From a virus, in the IMG/VR virus record IMGVR_UViG_3300025767_000128, positions 1-23,459 of that record: DNA of 23,459 bases; one strand, written 5' to 3'. Numbering within the stretch: position 1 is the first letter of the stretch; each line of letters opens with the position of its first letter. Positions 4,374 to 21,484 of the stretch are shown here, piece by piece. Position numbers and translations under genes: made by a program. The notes beneath the pieces were generated by a model. The model was not told the DNA's origin, searched no databases, and saw only the letters and a program-made list of their open reading frames with translations.

Positions 4374-5642
4374 ATGATAATAGTAGAGTCTAACAAAGAG
4401 CGGGAAGAATTCTTACAACGATGGAACAACGAGCCATCGGTTATCATTCCTATATGGTCTGATTTGGAGAAGCATCCAATGAACAATGAACTTTCGTTTT
4501 TGTTCGTTATGATGGGAAAATACAACTTTATACTCATATACAACCATATTGATGGAAAATCCCATCATTTAGACCTTACCACATCCGAACAACCGAAATG
4601 GGTGTGGAATAAGAAAGGATTTCTACAAATGGATACAAAGATACAAAATCTTTTTGATATATCCACATACACCTTCTTTGATGAGAATCGCTTGTTGGAC
4701 TTCAAACCCGAAGAACAACCTTTCATCACACATTATACCCGAATGGGTATAAGAGAGAACTTAGGTAAGATAGCACCTTTAATGAAATGGGGTGAGTACC
4801 TAACTTCTTTTGTGAATTCCTTTGAACTTCCTACTCCTAATAGTAGTTGGATGAATAACGATGTAATCCCTATCCTTTCAGATATTGAACGATATGGGGT
4901 TCGAGTCGATGGGGAAAAATTTTTAGATAGATATCCACAAGCCACCAAGCACCTATCCAATAACACCTTATACACCGAATACAACCCATACACCATTACC
5001 TCCCGTCCCTCCAATCGATTTGGTGGTATCAACTTTAGTGCCCTAAACAAAAAGGATGGAACGAGAGAAGTGTTTATTCCCAAACCCAACCACATATTCC
5101 TACAAATGGATTATGATGCATATCACCCTCGAATCATTGGAAAGATTGTTCACTATCCATTACCAACCACTTCGGTTCACCAATGGTTAGCGGACCAATA
5201 CGGAGTTCCTTACGATGAATCCAAAGGAATCACCTTCCAATTACTTTATGGTGGGATACCCGAAGAGTTCGACTCTATTCCTTATTATAAGAAGGTTAGA
5301 GAGTACATTGAGAAGTTGTGGGAGAACGCATCCCAAAGAGGATATACAAACACCTTATATCGTAATATCCCCCTCTCTTCGATTGAGGATGTGAATCCAC
5401 AAAAGTTATTTAACTATCTTCTCCAAGCAACTGAAACTGAGTTGAATATAAGAACGATGAAGAGAGTGTTGGAGTTTATTGAACAAACCGACATTGAATT
5501 GACCTTATACACTTATGATTCGTTTTTGTTCTCCTTCCCATTGGATGCACCTAAAGAACACGCTAAAAAATTGAAAGAATTGATTGAAGAGGGTGGATTC
5601 CCTATTAAAGCAAGTTGGGGAACGGATTATGGAAAACTTTAA
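4374..5642 (+). CDS. Compact, divergent family A (PolA-like) DNA polymerase
   Basis: A 422-aa protein with the three polymerase motifs of family A. Before motif A is 'TSRPSNRFGGINF' and 'DGTREVF', like the template-binding region of Pol I. Motif A is M245-D246-Y-D-A-Y-H251-P-R253; D246 fits catalytic Asp705 of E. coli Pol I, but the Glu710 position is His251. Motif B has K284-x3-F288-x3-Y292-G293, matching K758/F762/Y766; the usual upstream Arg is Tyr280. Motif C is 'YTYDSF' with D382, in place of HDE. The first ~160 residues ('WSDLEKHP..') may be a remnant of the 3'-5' exonuclease domain, with no convincing catalytic set. It is shorter than the Klenow fragment (~600 aa). It could be the replicative polymerase or an accessory enzyme; T4-like phages normally use family B. 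It has its own promoter (P2). Confidence 0.75.
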   Translation: MIIVESNKEREEFLQRWNNEPSVIIPIWSDLEKHPMNNELSFLFVMMGKYNFILIYNHIDGKSHHLDLTTSEQPKWVWNKKGFLQMDTKIQNLFDISTYTFFDENRLLDFKPEEQPFITHYTRMGIRENLGKIAPLMKWGEYLTSFVNSFELPTPNSSWMNNDVIPILSDIERYGVRVDGEKFLDRYPQATKHLSNNTLYTEYNPYTITSRPSNRFGGINFSALNKKDGTREVFIPKPNHIFLQMDYDAYHPRIIGKIVHYPLPTTSVHQWLADQYGVPYDESKGITFQLLYGGIPEEFDSIPYYKKVREYIEKLWENASQRGYTNTLYRNIPLSSIEDVNPQKLFNYLLQATETELNIRTMKRVLEFIEQTDIELTLYTYDSFLFSFPLDAPKEHAKKLKELIEEGGFPIKASWGTDYGKL

Positions 5643-16707: not shown

Positions 16708-17118
16708 ATGAATATATTTGAGTATCTTACTGATTCTATTAAAACCGATATAGCACCATCTTCAGTACACGGTATTGGGACATTCGCTTTAAGGGATTTG
16801 GAAATTGGTGAAGAGGTTTTTGTTAAGTGGGGTGGTGAATCAAAGGTTTATACTATTAGTGTGGATTCCTTTGAATCACTCCCAACTTATGTTAAAATGA
16901 TGATATTAAAGTCATACGAAAATAAAGAAGAATATCCATTTATTTGGTTTAGGTTATATAACGATTCATATTTCAATTTGGCTAATCCTTGGGCATATGT
17001 AAACACCAAAGAGAAAGATGGAAATGTGGATTCACTAACAAAAAAGGTAATTAAACCAATCAAATCAGGTGAAGAATTATTCGGAACCTATAATTTAGAA
17101 AATACAATATTAAAATGA
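16708..17118 (+). CDS. SET-domain protein, candidate lysine methyltransferase
   Basis: A 136-aa protein that is almost only a SET domain. Its N-terminal part 'APSSVHGIGTFALRDLEIGE' contains the H-G-x-G (H21-G22-I-G24) motif that contacts S-adenosylmethionine. Its end has 'YVNTKEKDGN' (N99, N106) in place of the classical NHSxxPN segment, then 'IKPIKSGEELFGTYN' with Y128, the SET C-terminal Tyr motif. SET enzymes methylate lysines of proteins, often histones or ribosomal proteins. The NHS motif is changed, so cofactor binding and activity are uncertain. It is the first gene after P7 and overlaps mazG by 4 bases (ATGA). An Hc1-like histone gene lies about 1 kb upstream, a natural candidate substrate. 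The fold call is good; the substrate is inference. Confidence 0.75.
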   Translation: MNIFEYLTDSIKTDIAPSSVHGIGTFALRDLEIGEEVFVKWGGESKVYTISVDSFESLPTYVKMMILKSYENKEEYPFIWFRLYNDSYFNLANPWAYVNTKEKDGNVDSLTKKVIKPIKSGEELFGTYNLENTILK

Positions 17119-17429
17119 CATTTGATAAACTAATTGAAAATGTAAAAGGTTGGGCAGACGATAAGGGTATCCTTAAATCTGAAAACGCTCCCAAACAACT
17201 GATGAAAGTAATGGAAGAGTTAGGTGAAACCGCTGGAGCCATTGCAAAGAACAAAGCAACCGATGAAATCCAAGATGGTATTGGTGATACATTCGTAACT
17301 CTAATCATTTTGGCTTATCAATTGGGATTGGAACCATCTGAGTGTTTGGAGCATGCTTGGAACGAAATTAAAGATAGAAAAGGAAAAACCGAAAACGGAG
17401 TTTTCATTAAAGAAGAAAAAGGACTATAA
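17115..17429 (+). CDS. mazG: MazG-like nucleotide pyrophosphohydrolase
   Basis: A 104-aa protein of the all-alpha MazG-like family. 'KVMEELGETAGAIAKNK' holds E34, E35 and E38 (the EExxE half of the metal site). 'DEIQDGIGDTFVTLIILAY' holds E51, D54 and D58 of the second half. 'WADDKGILKSENAPKQLMKV' is the usual N-terminal helix pair. These enzymes hydrolyse (d)NTPs to monophosphates and pyrophosphate, removing damaged or non-canonical nucleotides; in phages they have also been proposed to alter host stress nucleotides. It is the short, single-domain form. The start overlaps the SET gene by 4 bases and its stop overlaps the nrdA start (TAATG), so it is translated together with both. Confidence 0.85.
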   Translation: MTFDKLIENVKGWADDKGILKSENAPKQLMKVMEELGETAGAIAKNKATDEIQDGIGDTFVTLIILAYQLGLEPSECLEHAWNEIKDRKGKTENGVFIKEEKGL

Positions 17430-19210
17430 TGGCTAAGAATTACGGAGAAGATTTAGGTTGGGAATTAGGAGTGGATTTCCCAGAATGGGGTAACACAGAA
17501 ATTTATGTAAAAACAATTTCAAAGGGTTACCTATTACAAGGTGAAAAACCAAAAGATGCATATTGGAGAGTTGCAACTAAAGTGGCTCAACGATTGAACA
17601 AACCTCAGATGGCATCAAAATTCTTTGATTACATTTGGAAAGGTTGGTTAAATCTTGCAACACCTGTTCTTTCAAATACCGGAACCGATAGAGGTTTACC
17701 TATCTCTTGCTTCGGAATTGATGTAGCTGATTCAATCTTTGATATTGGTGCAAAGAACTTAGAATTGATGTTACTTGCAAAGCATGGTGGTGGTGTTGGT
17801 ATTGGTATCAACCAAATCAGACCAGCAGGTTCACCAATTACTGGTAATGGTACATCGGATGGTGTAATTCCATTCGCTAAAATATACGATTCAACAATCC
17901 TTGCAACAAACCAAGGTTCAGTTCGTAGAGGAGCAGCATCGGTAAACCTAAACATTGACCACAAAGATTTTGAAGAGTGGTTAGAGATTAGAGAACCTAA
18001 AGGTGATGTAAACCGCCAATCACTTAACCTACACCAATGTGCGGTAGTGGGTGATAAGTTTATGAGAAAGTTGGAAAATGGGGATGAAGAAGCTCGTAGA
18101 AAATGGAGTAAACTTCTTCAGAAGCGTAAGGCAACTGGTGAACCTTATATTATGTACAAAGGCAATGTAAACAAACAAAACCCTGATATGTACAAACATA
18201 ATGGTTTGAAGGTTCATATGACAAACATTTGTTCTGAGATTACCTTACATACTGATGAATCACATTCATTTGTTTGTTGTTTGAGTTCATTGAACTTAGC
18301 AAAATATAACGAATGGAAAGATACTGATTTGGTATATACTGCAACTTGGTTTTTGGATGGTGTTCTTTCTGAATTTATCCAAAAAGCTAAGAACTTAAAA
18401 GGATTTGAAAACTCAGTTCGTTCTGCTGAAAAAGGTAGAGCATTGGGATTGGGTGTATTGGGATGGCATACTTACCTACAACAAAATGGTATTCCATTCG
18501 AAGGTATGACAGCACAATTTGAAACTCGTAAGATTTTCTCTCAATTGAAGATTGAATCCGAAAGAGCGAGTAGAGATATGGCTTCCGAATATGGGGAACC
18601 TTTATGGTGTAGAGATAGTGGGTTCAGAAACACTCACCTTCGTGCAATCGCACCAACGGTATCTAACTCTAAATTGAGTGGTGATGTATCAGCTGGTATC
18701 GAACCTTGGGCAGCTAATGTATTTACTGAACAAACCGCAAAAGGAACTTTCATTCGTAAGAATGGTGAGTTGGAAAAAGTACTTAAAAAGATTGGAATCA
18801 ACACCAAAGAAACTTGGGACAAGATTATGGCTGATGGTGGTTCAATTCAGGATATTGCAGAATTGGATAATTGGTGTTTCCTTAATGGTAAAGTTATTAA
18901 GTGTGATGAGATTTCTGAAACCGATTCACAAAAAACATTTACTATTAAGAGTGTATTCAAAACATTCAAAGAAATTAACCAATTAGATTTGGTTAGACAA
19001 GCTGGTATTAGACAACAATATATTGACCAATCGGTTTCATTAAATTTGGCATTCCCATCAACGGCATCTCCAAAGTGGATTAACCAAGTATCTATGGAAG
19101 CATGGAAGCAAGGTGTAAAGACACTTTACTATATGAGAACCGAATCGGTTTTGAGAGGGGATATTGCAACACAAGCAATGGACCCAGAATGTTTAAGTTG
19201 TGATGGATAA
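17429..19210 (+). CDS. nrdA: Ribonucleotide reductase class I alpha (catalytic) subunit, without ATP-cone
   Basis: A 593-aa protein. The catalytic triad is N266, C268 and E270 in 'NICSEI'. The redox pair is C94 ('PISCFG') and C283 ('FVCCLSSLNL'). Y567-Y568 ('LYYMRT') match the radical-transfer Tyr730-731 of E. coli, and C588/C591 ('ECLSCDG') form the C-terminal swivelling pair that thioredoxin reduces. 'LAKHGGGVGIGINQIRP' is the usual substrate/effector region. The N-terminus starts at the core and lacks the ~90-residue ATP-cone, so dATP overall inhibition is probably absent; the protein is much shorter than E. coli NrdA (761). It reduces ribonucleotides with NrdB. It overlaps mazG by one base and precedes thioredoxin by 19 bases. 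Confidence 0.92.
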   Translation: MAKNYGEDLGWELGVDFPEWGNTEIYVKTISKGYLLQGEKPKDAYWRVATKVAQRLNKPQMASKFFDYIWKGWLNLATPVLSNTGTDRGLPISCFGIDVADSIFDIGAKNLELMLLAKHGGGVGIGINQIRPAGSPITGNGTSDGVIPFAKIYDSTILATNQGSVRRGAASVNLNIDHKDFEEWLEIREPKGDVNRQSLNLHQCAVVGDKFMRKLENGDEEARRKWSKLLQKRKATGEPYIMYKGNVNKQNPDMYKHNGLKVHMTNICSEITLHTDESHSFVCCLSSLNLAKYNEWKDTDLVYTATWFLDGVLSEFIQKAKNLKGFENSVRSAEKGRALGLGVLGWHTYLQQNGIPFEGMTAQFETRKIFSQLKIESERASRDMASEYGEPLWCRDSGFRNTHLRAIAPTVSNSKLSGDVSAGIEPWAANVFTEQTAKGTFIRKNGELEKVLKKIGINTKETWDKIMADGGSIQDIAELDNWCFLNGKVIKCDEISETDSQKTFTIKSVFKTFKEINQLDLVRQAGIRQQYIDQSVSLNLAFPSTASPKWINQVSMEAWKQGVKTLYYMRTESVLRGDIATQAMDPECLSCDG

Positions 19211-19229: not shown

Positions 19230-19499
19230 ATGTTAGAAGTAAAGAAATTTTATGGAACATGGTGCGGGCCTTGTAAAGCATTAGCACCAACTATTGAAAA
19301 GTTGAAGCAAGCACATACTGATGTTAGATTCGAAGATATCGATGTTGATGTTGATTTTGAAGCTGCATCTAAATACGGAGTTCGTAGTATTCCATTGGTA
19401 GTTATTGAAAAGGATGGACAAGAGGTACAGCGTTTTGCTGGACTTCAATCAGAAATGGCATATAATAACGCAATCAATGAATTGAAAAAGGTAGGATAA
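19230..19499 (+). CDS. Thioredoxin-like reductant
   Basis: An 89-aa thioredoxin fold with the classical active site W11-C12-G-P-C15 and the cis-proline P55 in 'VRSIPLVV'. The N-terminal strand-helix of full-length thioredoxin (~105 aa) is shortened, which is common in phage thioredoxins. It most likely reduces the C-terminal cysteine pair of the NrdA encoded directly upstream. The order nrdA-trx supports this. An acidic stretch ('EDIDVDVDFEAA') makes up the middle. Its stop overlaps the next start (TAATG 19497-19501). Host thioredoxin reductase would be needed to recycle it, since none is seen here. Confidence 0.88.
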   Translation: MLEVKKFYGTWCGPCKALAPTIEKLKQAHTDVRFEDIDVDVDFEAASKYGVRSIPLVVIEKDGQEVQRFAGLQSEMAYNNAINELKKVG

Positions 19500-19702
19500 T
19501 GCCAATACTAAGAGGTCAGTCTCATCCGTCATCAAAGTTGACAGATGAGCAGGTTATACAAATAAGAAAGTTATGGAAAATGGGACACCGAAATGTTCGA
19601 GTAATGGCTCGAAACAATAAGTGTTCCTCAGCCAATATTCTTAGGATTGTACGAAATGAAACTTGGACACATCTAAATGAATTTTGGTCTGGTAGTTTAT
19701 GA
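19499..19702 (+). CDS. Small helix-turn-helix DNA-binding protein
   Basis: A 67-aa protein whose core ('KLTDEQVIQIRKLWKMGHRN', then 'VRVMARNNKCSSANILRIVR', then 'NETWTHL') has the pattern of the HTH module often found at the C-terminus of phage HNH endonucleases and alone as a small DNA-binding protein: a helix 'L..eqv..Ir.l', a 'G..' turn, a recognition-helix region and a 'W.hl' end. No nuclease part is attached. It may be a transcription regulator or the left-over DNA-binding part of a homing endonuclease. It overlaps both neighbours (TAATG before, ATGA after), so it is translated with thioredoxin and the first Mom-like gene. The HTH call is from pattern only. Confidence 0.6.
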   Translation: MPILRGQSHPSSKLTDEQVIQIRKLWKMGHRNVRVMARNNKCSSANILRIVRNETWTHLNEFWSGSL

Positions 19703-20460
19703 AAGAAAATAAGATATACTGCGATACATCAAAGTTATCCATTAGACCTATAACTAAATCGGTAGCGAAAGATATCATTGTTAACAACCATTATAGTGGA
19801 TTGTGGACAAAGGTATCTTACGCTATCGGTTTATTCACTTCAGAGGTTGAAGAACATCCTTTCTTCCAAAATGTAGAAGAAAAACTAATTGGAGTTGCCT
19901 GTTATGGAGACCCAATTGGTAGAAGTGCTGGACAATCCATCACTCCCTTATTAGAAAGAACCGAAGTATTGGAACTAACCCGATTATTTGTATTCGATGG
20001 GTATGGTTCAAACATTGAGAGTTGGTTCTTATCTCAAACTTTCGATTGGTTAAGAGAAAACGCTTCCCACATCAAAGGACTTATATCGTATTCAGACCCC
20101 AAAGTTGGACATAACGGAACAATTTACCAAGCAACTAATTGGTTGTATCAAGGTAACAAATTGAGATTCAACGATAGTTGGGATTTCAGATGGGAAGAAG
20201 ATGGTGAATGGCATCACGGAAGAACTTCCTATGTGAAGTTTGGGACAAATGACCCGAAAGAAATCCAAAAGATGATATCAACTCCCTTTTGGATAAAGAA
20301 ATCACCCAGAAAACACCGATATGTGTACATCTTATCAAAGGGTGGTGAACGAAGAAAACTAATTAAAACATTAAAGCACCCAACACTCCCTTATCCAAAG
20401 GAAAGTGAAGAATTTGTAGATGAAATCCACAAATTAGAACCAATCAATTTGGATAATTAA
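19699..20460 (+). CDS. Mom-like DNA-modification protein (GNAT-like), copy 1
   Basis: A 253-aa protein resembling the phage Mu Mom family, a GNAT-like fold that in Mu changes adenine to N6-carbamoylmethyl-adenine and protects DNA from restriction. Seen here: 'IIVNNHYSG' near residue 30, 'LIGVACYGDPIG', 'VLELTRLFVFDGYGSNIES', 'LISYSDPKVGHNGTIYQATN' followed by WLYQG, and 'HGRTSYVKFG'. The order and spacing fit Mom-like proteins. The same blocks recur in the paralogue at 20657-21460. A basic C-terminus with 'KHPTLPYPKE' may contact DNA. It overlaps the HTH gene by 4 bases and ends inside promoter P8. Another GNAT activity is possible; the family link is moderately sure, the chemistry inference. 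Confidence 0.65.
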   Translation: MKENKIYCDTSKLSIRPITKSVAKDIIVNNHYSGLWTKVSYAIGLFTSEVEEHPFFQNVEEKLIGVACYGDPIGRSAGQSITPLLERTEVLELTRLFVFDGYGSNIESWFLSQTFDWLRENASHIKGLISYSDPKVGHNGTIYQATNWLYQGNKLRFNDSWDFRWEEDGEWHHGRTSYVKFGTNDPKEIQKMISTPFWIKKSPRKHRYVYILSKGGERRKLIKTLKHPTLPYPKESEEFVDEIHKLEPINLDN

Positions 20461-20479
20461 AATATTTTTCGTATATTTG
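20448..20479 (+). promoter_or_regulatory. Bacteroidota-type promoter (P8) for the second Mom-like gene
   Basis: TTTG 20448-20451, 20-bp spacer, TATATTTG 20472-20479. The -33 region overlaps the last codons and stop (TAA 20458-20460) of Mom-like copy 1. The first ATG downstream (20498) is 18 bases away. Confidence 0.8.
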
Positions 20480-20497
20480 TTTATTAAATAGATTGAC

Positions 20498-20656
20498 ATG
20501 ACTGAATCGGAAGAAATCGAAGGAATCCTAATTGAAGCATCAGCATATAACCTCCGTACTGAGGTAATGGAATGGGCTGTAAAGGAATTAAAAGAAAACC
20601 CAAAAATGCGGAGAGTTGATGCATATCACTTAGCATTTAATGAGTGGGTAAAATAG
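20498..20656 (+). CDS. Small 52-aa helical protein between the Mom-like paralogues
   Basis: A 52-aa acidic, helical protein ('EEIEGILIEASAYNLRTEVM', then 'EWAVKELKENPKMRRVDAYH', then a 'LAFNEWVK' end). The pattern 'A...l..np.....ayh.a..eWv' is seen in short uncharacterised phage and bacterial proteins. It is the first gene after P8 and its TAG stop is directly followed by the ATG of the next gene, so it is very likely translated. It may be an accessory factor of the Mom-like enzyme (Mu Mom also has a small partner, Com, a translational activator, but there is no zinc motif here). Function unknown. Confidence 0.6.
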   Translation: MTESEEIEGILIEASAYNLRTEVMEWAVKELKENPKMRRVDAYHLAFNEWVK

Positions 20657-21460
20657 ATGAAAGAAGAAGGAAAACACTATGTAGATGCAAATAGGGTAAG
20701 CGTAGCTCCTATTGCAAAATCTATCGCTAAAGATATGATTATCAAAAAGCACTACACTCATGCTTGGACAGCATGTAGATATGCTTTGGGTATCTATCAT
20801 CAAATGGATGAAAACGATGTATTTGGTAATGATAAGCAATTAGTTGGAGTAGCAGTATATGGTTTCCCAGTTGGGGCTAAGGCATCCACCTCAGTTTGTG
20901 AAGGATTAACCAAAGATAACATCTTAGAACTTACCCGTTTGTATGTAGATGATGGATATGGTTCAAACATCGAAAGTTGTGCAATAGGTAAAACTTTCCA
21001 ATGGTTAAAAGAAAACGATACCAACATCAAAGTTTTACTTTCTTACGCTAACAACGGACAGGGGCATGTTGGTGGAATCTATAAGGCAACCAATTGGATT
21101 TATCAAGGTTTGAACACGGATATTGCGCTCATGCCAAATTGGGGTATCTCTCTATCTAATGACCCATACGATTGGATTCATAGTAGGACAGTTTACAATA
21201 ATTGGGGTAGTGGTAACTTAGAACATCTACGAAGAGAAATTGGAAAGCAGGGTTATACTGAATTTTGGAGAAGAGAAGAACCACCAAAACATAGATACAT
21301 TCAGATTCTTGCTCAGAACAAAAAGGAAAAGAAAGATTTGATGAAACGATTAAAGCACCCAATACTTCCTTATCCAAAAGAACTAAACGATTACAATACT
21401 GAAATCGTACACCATACAACATACGCACCGGAAGAATCAAACGAAATAAATTTTTGGTAA
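20657..21460 (+). CDS. Mom-like DNA-modification protein (GNAT-like), copy 2
   Basis: A 267-aa paralogue of the protein at 19699-20460. Shared blocks in the same order: 'IIKKHYTHAW', 'LVGVAVYGFPVGA', 'ILELTRLYVDDGYGSNIES', 'LLSYANNGQGHVGGIYKATN' followed by WIYQG, 'HSRTVYNNWG' and 'LKHPILPYPKELND'. The largest differences are in the ends and in the region just before the HSR/HGR block. The 'SYSDPKVGHNG' of copy 1 is 'SYANNGQGHVG' here, so an acidic residue in the likely active-site loop is lost, which could mean a different substrate or an inactive partner. It starts directly after the 52-aa gene and ends inside promoter P9. Family link moderate, chemistry inferred. Confidence 0.65.
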   Translation: MKEEGKHYVDANRVSVAPIAKSIAKDMIIKKHYTHAWTACRYALGIYHQMDENDVFGNDKQLVGVAVYGFPVGAKASTSVCEGLTKDNILELTRLYVDDGYGSNIESCAIGKTFQWLKENDTNIKVLLSYANNGQGHVGGIYKATNWIYQGLNTDIALMPNWGISLSNDPYDWIHSRTVYNNWGSGNLEHLRREIGKQGYTEFWRREEPPKHRYIQILAQNKKEKKDLMKRLKHPILPYPKELNDYNTEIVHHTTYAPEESNEINFW

Positions 21461-21484
21461 ATCCAAATATTTTTTGTATATTCG
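21453..21484 (+). promoter_or_regulatory. Bacteroidota-type promoter (P9) with perfect TTTGG/CCAAA dyad
   Basis: TTTG 21453-21456, 20-bp spacer, TATATTCG 21477-21484 (one mismatch). TTTGG-TAAAT-CCAAA (21453-21467) is a perfect dyad. The TAA stop of Mom-like copy 2 (21458-21460) lies within it. The next ATG is 30 bases downstream. Confidence 0.75.

What the first reader, a model, noticed from the sequence alone, without database searches (positions are those of the whole stretch)
19699..21460. Tandem Mom-like paralogues with a small gene and a promoter between them
Two proteins of 253 and 267 aa share all main blocks (NHY/KHY, ELTRL.V.DGYGSNIES, SY....GH.G.IY.ATNW.YQG, KHP.LPYPKE) and are divided by P8 and a 52-aa gene. 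Copy 2 changes the SYSDP block to SYANN, losing an acidic residue. Single Mom-like genes are known in phages; a divergent pair suggests two adenine modifications, a heterodimer with one regulatory partner, or a shift to a different substrate.
Basis: partly seen in the sequence, partly recalled or inferred. Interest (0 to 1): 0.65.

Follow-up and report, generated by a model that had tools for sequence, protein, structure and literature searches.

The report
Paired Mom DNA-modification genes in phages
This phage carries two long-separated copies of Mom, an enzyme family that chemically masks phage DNA from bacterial restriction enzymes; many related uncultured phages keep the two side by side, in a genome slot that close relatives fill with ordinary DNA methyltransferases, which suggests a two-enzyme DNA-masking kit rather than an accidental duplicate.

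Summary
Two proteins of 253 and 267 aa (c1, c2; 44% identical) flank a 52-aa gene and a Bacteroidota-type promoter. Both are full-length Mom proteins by profile (PF25680, E 7e-44 and 2e-45) and by predicted fold (best PDB hit for both is phage Mu Mom 8bv8, E 6e-13 and 9e-14). Both keep the serine equivalent to Mu S124, which PDB labels 'inactive' when mutated.

The pair is an ancient duplication. It occurs in 85 distinct sequences in the order NrdA-thioredoxin-HTH-c1-c2; c2 alone is rare (6) and c1 alone was not seen. With NrdA as anchor, contigs hold both genes or neither (13 and 29). Sister phages put three N6/N4 DNA methyltransferases in exactly this slot, which supports a DNA-modification role.

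The 'lost acidic residue' (Mu D149, Asp in 65 of 67 diverse Moms) is real but does not define copy 2: it is one derived Asp-to-Asn change in a c2 subclade, fixed in 17/17 under strong purifying selection, and it persists in phages lacking c1, which argues against a dead partner of c1.

Best reading: two diverged Mom modifiers, probably with different target contexts; untested biochemically. New variant of a known kind.

The parts
19699..20460 (+). c1, Mom-family protein copy 1 (253 aa)
   Evidence: PF25680 E 7.3e-44; AF2 model pLDDT 83.8, top PDB hit 8bv8 E 6e-13
20657..21460 (+). c2, Mom-family protein copy 2 (267 aa)
   Evidence: PF25680 E 2.1e-45; AF2 model pLDDT 82.6, top PDB hit 8bv8 E 8.7e-14
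20498..20656 (+). 52-aa gene between the copies; no Pfam or PHROG match; no cysteine, so not Com-like
   Evidence: homologues in the c2-Asn clade and, with methyltransferases instead of Moms, in L406-L408
20448..20479 (+).
   Evidence: conserved in 36 of 40 distinct gapped pairs
20020..20022 (+). codon for Ser108 of c1 = Mu Mom S124 (mutated in the 'inactive' crystal structure)
20975..20977 (+). codon for Ser107 of c2 = Mu Mom S124
20095..20097 (+). codon GAC, Asp133 of c1 = Mu Mom D149 (Asp in 84/84 distinct c1)
21050..21052 (+). codon AAC, Asn132 of c2 = Mu Mom D149 position (Asn in 17, Asp in 66 of 83 distinct c2)
19499..19702 (+). 67-aa gene, HTH-like (weak HNH-endonuclease PHROG match E 0.001), stop overlaps c1 start (ATGA)
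   Evidence: found in 136 of 143 loci with both Moms
19230..19499 (+). thioredoxin; conserved upstream neighbour of the slot
17429..19210 (+). ribonucleotide reductase large subunit (NrdA); anchor gene of the slot
   Evidence: anchored census
21453..21484 (+). next promoter of the same type, after c2

Best explanation
c1 and c2 are two Mom-family (GNAT-fold) DNA-modification enzymes produced by an ancient duplication in a lineage of large phages that probably infect Bacteroidota. Shown: family, fold, conserved catalytic serine, paired inheritance, purifying selection, and replacement of the pair by DNA methyltransferases in sister phages. Inferred: each adds a Mom-type group (methylcarbamoyl or a related acyl-like group) to adenine N6 in phage DNA, at partly different sequence contexts, so that together they block more host restriction enzymes than one could. 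c2 is the more constant member, and c1 the one gained or lost. In the window's clade c2 has its own promoter and so can be expressed separately from c1. Its Asp-to-Asn change at Mu D149 is a tolerated, selected refinement, not decay.
For: Family: PF25680 full-length matches for both copies, PHROG 1384 'Mom-like'. Fold: top PDB hit for both is Mu Mom S124A, TM by target 0.73-0.77, followed by GNAT acyltransferases. Serine kept in both, 66/67 in the family. Tree: c1 and c2 are two clean sister clades (100/100; together 100/97 apart from Polaribacter and Brocadia Moms). 85 distinct pairs, 6 c2-only, 0 c1-only. NrdA-anchored census 13 both, 29 none, 0 single; HTH-anchored 39 both, 1 c2-only, 3 none. 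An independent anchor, the downstream 607-aa gene, also finds pairs. dN/dS medians 0.13 (c1), 0.13 (c2-Asp), 0.06 (c2-Asn). 26 fixed diagnostic residues. Slot logic: three PF01555 methyltransferases (E 1e-43 to 6e-46) replace the Mom pair in L406-L408, and those contigs have no Mom; a methyltransferase plus HNH nuclease replaces c1 in L082; a methyltransferase lies between the Moms in L068.
Against: No activity, substrate or target sequence was tested for either protein. Different target contexts are an inference: the diagnostic residues are not significantly clustered near conserved catalytic positions in sequence (6 of 26 against 3.8 expected, p 0.16). Most contigs are fragments, so a missing copy may lie elsewhere. 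dN/dS values are pairwise, with dS near saturation.
Confidence: 0.55

Rival explanations
1. c1 and c2 form an obligate heterodimer in which c1 is the catalytic subunit and c2 (Asn at Mu D149) a non-catalytic or regulatory subunit.
For: The pair is inherited as a unit in anchored censuses. D149 is Asp in 65/67 diverse Moms but Asn in this c2. Several relatives have overlapping genes, as expected for co-translated subunits.
Against: c2 with Asn occurs without c1 in L015, L018 and L020, where the HTH gene is followed directly by c2. Most c2 keep the Asp. c2 keeps the catalytic serine. c2, not c1, is the copy that survives alone. In the window's clade a promoter separates the two genes.
Confidence: 0.15
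2. c2 of the window's clade has changed chemistry: with Asn for Asp at the D149 position it transfers a different group or acts on a different base.
For: The position is nearly invariant (D 65, N 1, E 1 of 67). The change is a single event, then fixed in 17/17 under the strongest purifying selection of the three groups. It sits among other clade-typical residues (Cys108 next to the serine, Lys143, Gly136).
Against: Asp to Asn is isosteric and all other near-invariant residues remain. There is no structural or biochemical evidence for another substrate. The accompanying residues also occur in a few Asp-type c2.
Confidence: 0.15
3. Redundant duplicates kept for dosage.
For: Same fold, motifs and location, and both have the catalytic serine.
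Against: 44% identity with 26 positions fixed differently, separate long-lived clades, and replacement of one copy but not the other in L082.
Confidence: 0.1
4. Not DNA-modifying: acyltransferases acting on host proteins or small molecules.
For: The GNAT fold is widely used for protein and small-molecule acylation (searches list such enzymes below Mom).
Against: Mom itself is the top structural and sequence hit by many orders of magnitude. The locus is swapped with DNA methyltransferases and nucleases in sister phages.
Confidence: 0.05

Closest known systems
Mom of phage Mu (NP_050657, PDB 8bv8)
   Same: Profile, fold, catalytic serine (S124), and the H58, Y59, R111, Y159 and N163 equivalents in both copies.
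   Different: About 22% identity. Two copies instead of one. c2 has Asn at D149. No Com-like zinc-finger gene upstream (the 52-aa gene has no Cys and the 67-aa gene has one), whereas Mu com overlaps mom.
Single Mom of Polaribacter phage P12002L (YP_009209713)
   Same: Nearest isolate homologue, 46% to c1 and 42% to c2, outside but next to the c1/c2 clade; lies next to a DNA methyltransferase gene.
   Different: One copy only, in a 48.7-kb phage.
Mom-REase fusions of jumbo phages (Iyer et al. 2021, PMC7824862)
   Same: Mom domains in large phages, predicted to protect phage DNA.
   Different: Those are fused to nuclease domains. Here both are stand-alone Mom proteins in tandem. The 484-kb record LR756508 has four Mom-domain ORFs in frames of 510-797 aa.
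Arrays of PF01555 DNA methyltransferases in the same slot (L406-L408)
   Same: Same position between the HTH/52-aa genes and downstream genes, so presumably the same role.
   Different: Unrelated enzyme family (N6/N4 methyl transfer).

Membership tests
Mom (PF25680, Mu Mom type) | Full-length profile match above curated cut-off (27.1 bits) | tested here: met
   150.3 and 155.3 bits, profile 2-202 of 202
Mom (PF25680, Mu Mom type) | Mom/GNAT fold | tested here: met
   AF2 models; Foldseek top hit 8bv8 E 6e-13 and 9e-14, TM by target 0.73-0.77; GNATs next
Mom (PF25680, Mu Mom type) | Serine equivalent to Mu S124 | tested here: met
   S108 in c1, S107 in c2; 66/67 in family
Mom (PF25680, Mu Mom type) | Asp equivalent to Mu D149 (65/67 of family); not shown here to be required for activity | tested here: inconclusive
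   met in c1 (D133); not met in c2 of this clade (N132), met in 66/83 distinct c2
Mom (PF25680, Mu Mom type) | N6-methylcarbamoyl modification of adenine in DNA | not testable with these tools
   needs LC-MS of DNA
Mu-type com-mom operon | Cys4 zinc-finger Com gene overlapping mom | tested here: not met
   neighbouring small ORFs have 0 (52-aa) and 1 (67-aa) cysteines; Mu arrangement
Jumbo-phage Mom-REase fusion | Mom domain fused to a REase-fold nuclease domain | tested here: not met
   c1 and c2 are stand-alone, 253 and 267 aa, with a single Pfam domain

The most novel reading that the evidence does not exclude
The Asn-bearing c2 clade makes a chemically different DNA modification from c1, so these phages carry two distinct hypermodified adenines, or two modified bases, made by sister Mom enzymes.
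Probability: 0.15. Interest if true: 0.75.

Novelty: new variant of a known kind. Interest (0 to 1): 0.5.

Why it matters
The chemistry of Mom is unusual for its fold, and the role of its nearly invariant Asp is hard to probe by mutation alone. A natural, selected Asp-to-Asn variant beside an Asp-bearing sister, and also alone in some phages, is a ready-made comparison. The slot, where one phage lineage holds a Mom pair and its sister holds three methyltransferases, also shows how phages swap whole anti-restriction kits at one place.

Tried and rejected
Copy 2 as a decaying or dead duplicate: rejected, dN/dS 0.06 in the Asn clade and Asn fixed in 17/17. Spacer gene as part of the Mom system: rejected as general, because many pairs have no spacer and the 52-aa gene also sits before methyltransferases in L406-L408. 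Com-like regulator: no cysteine-rich small gene. Diagnostic c1/c2 residues clustered near catalytic residues: tested, not significant (p 0.16). Cassette swapping faster than the flanks: c2 is on the whole about as conserved as NrdA (medians 81% and 83%), although single cases (L282: c1 69% and c2 57% beside a 92% downstream gene; L166: c2 57% beside NrdA 93%) suggest exchange. Literature on Mom catalytic residues: the main paper is not held in the library, and other searches found only passing mentions. LR756508, related by replication genes, has Mom-domain ORFs but only as weak, apparently fused matches. Atomic coordinates of the models were not available, so distances around Asn132 were not measured.

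Full report
OBSERVATION. c1 (19699-20460) and c2 (20657-21460) align over 250 residues at 44% identity. The promoter at 20448-20479 belongs to a set of very similar TTTG...TATATTTG/TATCTTTG elements in the intergenic regions of the window. This is the Bacteroidota-type promoter (established knowledge). The host was not determined directly. The replicative helicase is closest to an unannotated 484-kb phage, a Microcystis phage and Flavobacterium phages.

WHAT THE PROTEINS ARE. Each matches Pfam Mom (PF25680) end to end and the PHROG 'Mom-like DNA modification protein'. AlphaFold2 models built from the window and its relatives (mean pLDDT 83.8 and 82.6) have as best match among solved structures phage Mu Mom, entry 8bv8, 'inactive mutant S124A' (E 6e-13 and 9e-14, TM-score by target 0.73-0.77), followed by ordinary GNAT acyltransferases. 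Aligning Mu Mom with the crystal chain located the mutated residue at position 124 of NP_050657; it corresponds to Ser108 in c1 and Ser107 in c2 and is Ser in 66 of 67 diverse Moms. The equivalents of Mu H58, Y59, R111, Y159 and N163 are present in both copies.

THE ACIDIC RESIDUE. It is Asp in 65 of 67 representatives; the only Asn among them is the window's c2 clade. In the larger sets c1 has Asp in 84 of 84 distinct sequences, while c2 has Asp in 66 and Asn in 17. The tree places all Asn-bearing c2 in one clade (98/96) nested among Asp-bearing c2, so the change most likely happened once and late. It is not degeneration: pairwise dN/dS has median 0.06 in the Asn clade, against 0.13 for c2-Asp and c1.

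ORIGIN AND DISTRIBUTION. c1 and c2 are sister clades, each with full support, within a group that excludes the Moms of Polaribacter phage P12002L and a Brocadia contig. c1-like and c2-like proteins are also found on two contigs of the TMED198 bin, although the c2-like placement is weak (81/55). Among GenBank phages with a match, each record had one place (224 of 224 and 173 of 173). In IMG/VR there are 85 distinct c1-c2 DNA sequences, 6 c2-only cases and no c1-only case with intact downstream DNA. Those counts come from searching with the Moms themselves, so three other anchors were used. With NrdA: 13 pairs, 29 without Mom nearby, no singles. With the 67-aa HTH gene: 39 pairs, 1 c2-only, 3 none. 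With the downstream 607-aa gene, c1 and c2 hits sit side by side in the loci with enough upstream sequence. The genes therefore mostly come and go together.

THE SLOT. The order NrdA, thioredoxin, HTH67, c1, (spacer), c2 is conserved; HTH67 is found in 136 of 143 loci with both Moms. The spacer is empty (17-nt overlap or 4-nt gap), a 52-aa gene, an 84-89 aa gene, or larger inserts. In L068 it holds a PF01555 methyltransferase and a 415-aa protein of unknown family. In L082 c1 is replaced by a methyltransferase (PHROG 67, E 2e-81; PF01555) and an HNH endonuclease, while c2 stays. In L406-L408 the HTH and 52/53-aa genes remain, but the Mom pair is replaced by three tandem PF01555 methyltransferases (E 1e-43 to 6e-46 in L406), and no Mom is found on those contigs. 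The slot is thus a DNA-modification position, which is independent support for the proposed role of the Mom pair.

HOW IT MOST LIKELY WORKS. Mu Mom converts adenine to an N6-methylcarbamoyl form and protects DNA from many restriction enzymes (PMC8281217, PMC6483171). By homology both copies should do something of this kind. 26 positions are fixed differently in c1 and c2, which together with co-inheritance suggests division of labour, most simply different sequence contexts. A heterodimer with c2 as inactive partner is disfavoured, because Asn-bearing c2 stands alone in L015, L018 and L020, where the HTH gene runs directly into c2 (one Mom per record). Different chemistry of the Asn form remains possible.

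LIMITS. Contigs are fragments, so absence is provisional. No activity, target site or complex formation was tested. The Mu Mom mechanistic paper was not available, so the role of D149 is not stated beyond its conservation. The proximity test of diagnostic residues was negative (p 0.16).

VERDICT. Both copies are members of the Mom family. The arrangement as a long-lived tandem pair with a natural D149N variant is a new variant of a known kind.

Noticed in passing
window 16708-17118: 136-aa SET-domain protein (PF00856, 23.4 bits, just over cut-off) beside the ribonucleotide reductase genes of a phage.
   Followed up: no
L406, L407, L408: Three tandem N6/N4 DNA methyltransferases occupy exactly the slot of the Mom pair in closely related phages.
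   Followed up: partly
LR756508.1 159414-218044: 484-kb phage record with four Mom-domain ORFs in frames of 510-797 aa, two over the Pfam cut-off.
   Followed up: no
L218, L219: The 'bacterium TMED198' bin has three Mom genes on two contigs, one of a quite different Mom subgroup.
   Followed up: partly
L271 927-2097: Synechococcus phage DSL-LC03: a gene annotated as type II restriction endonuclease overlaps the Mom gene.
   Followed up: no
window 4374-5642: 422-aa protein matching only the C-terminal part of a phage DNA polymerase profile (phrog_17, positions 956-1231).
   Followed up: no
L166, L282: c2 only 57% identical to the window's while NrdA is 93% (L166) or the downstream gene 92% (L282): local exchange of the Mom cassette.
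   Followed up: partly
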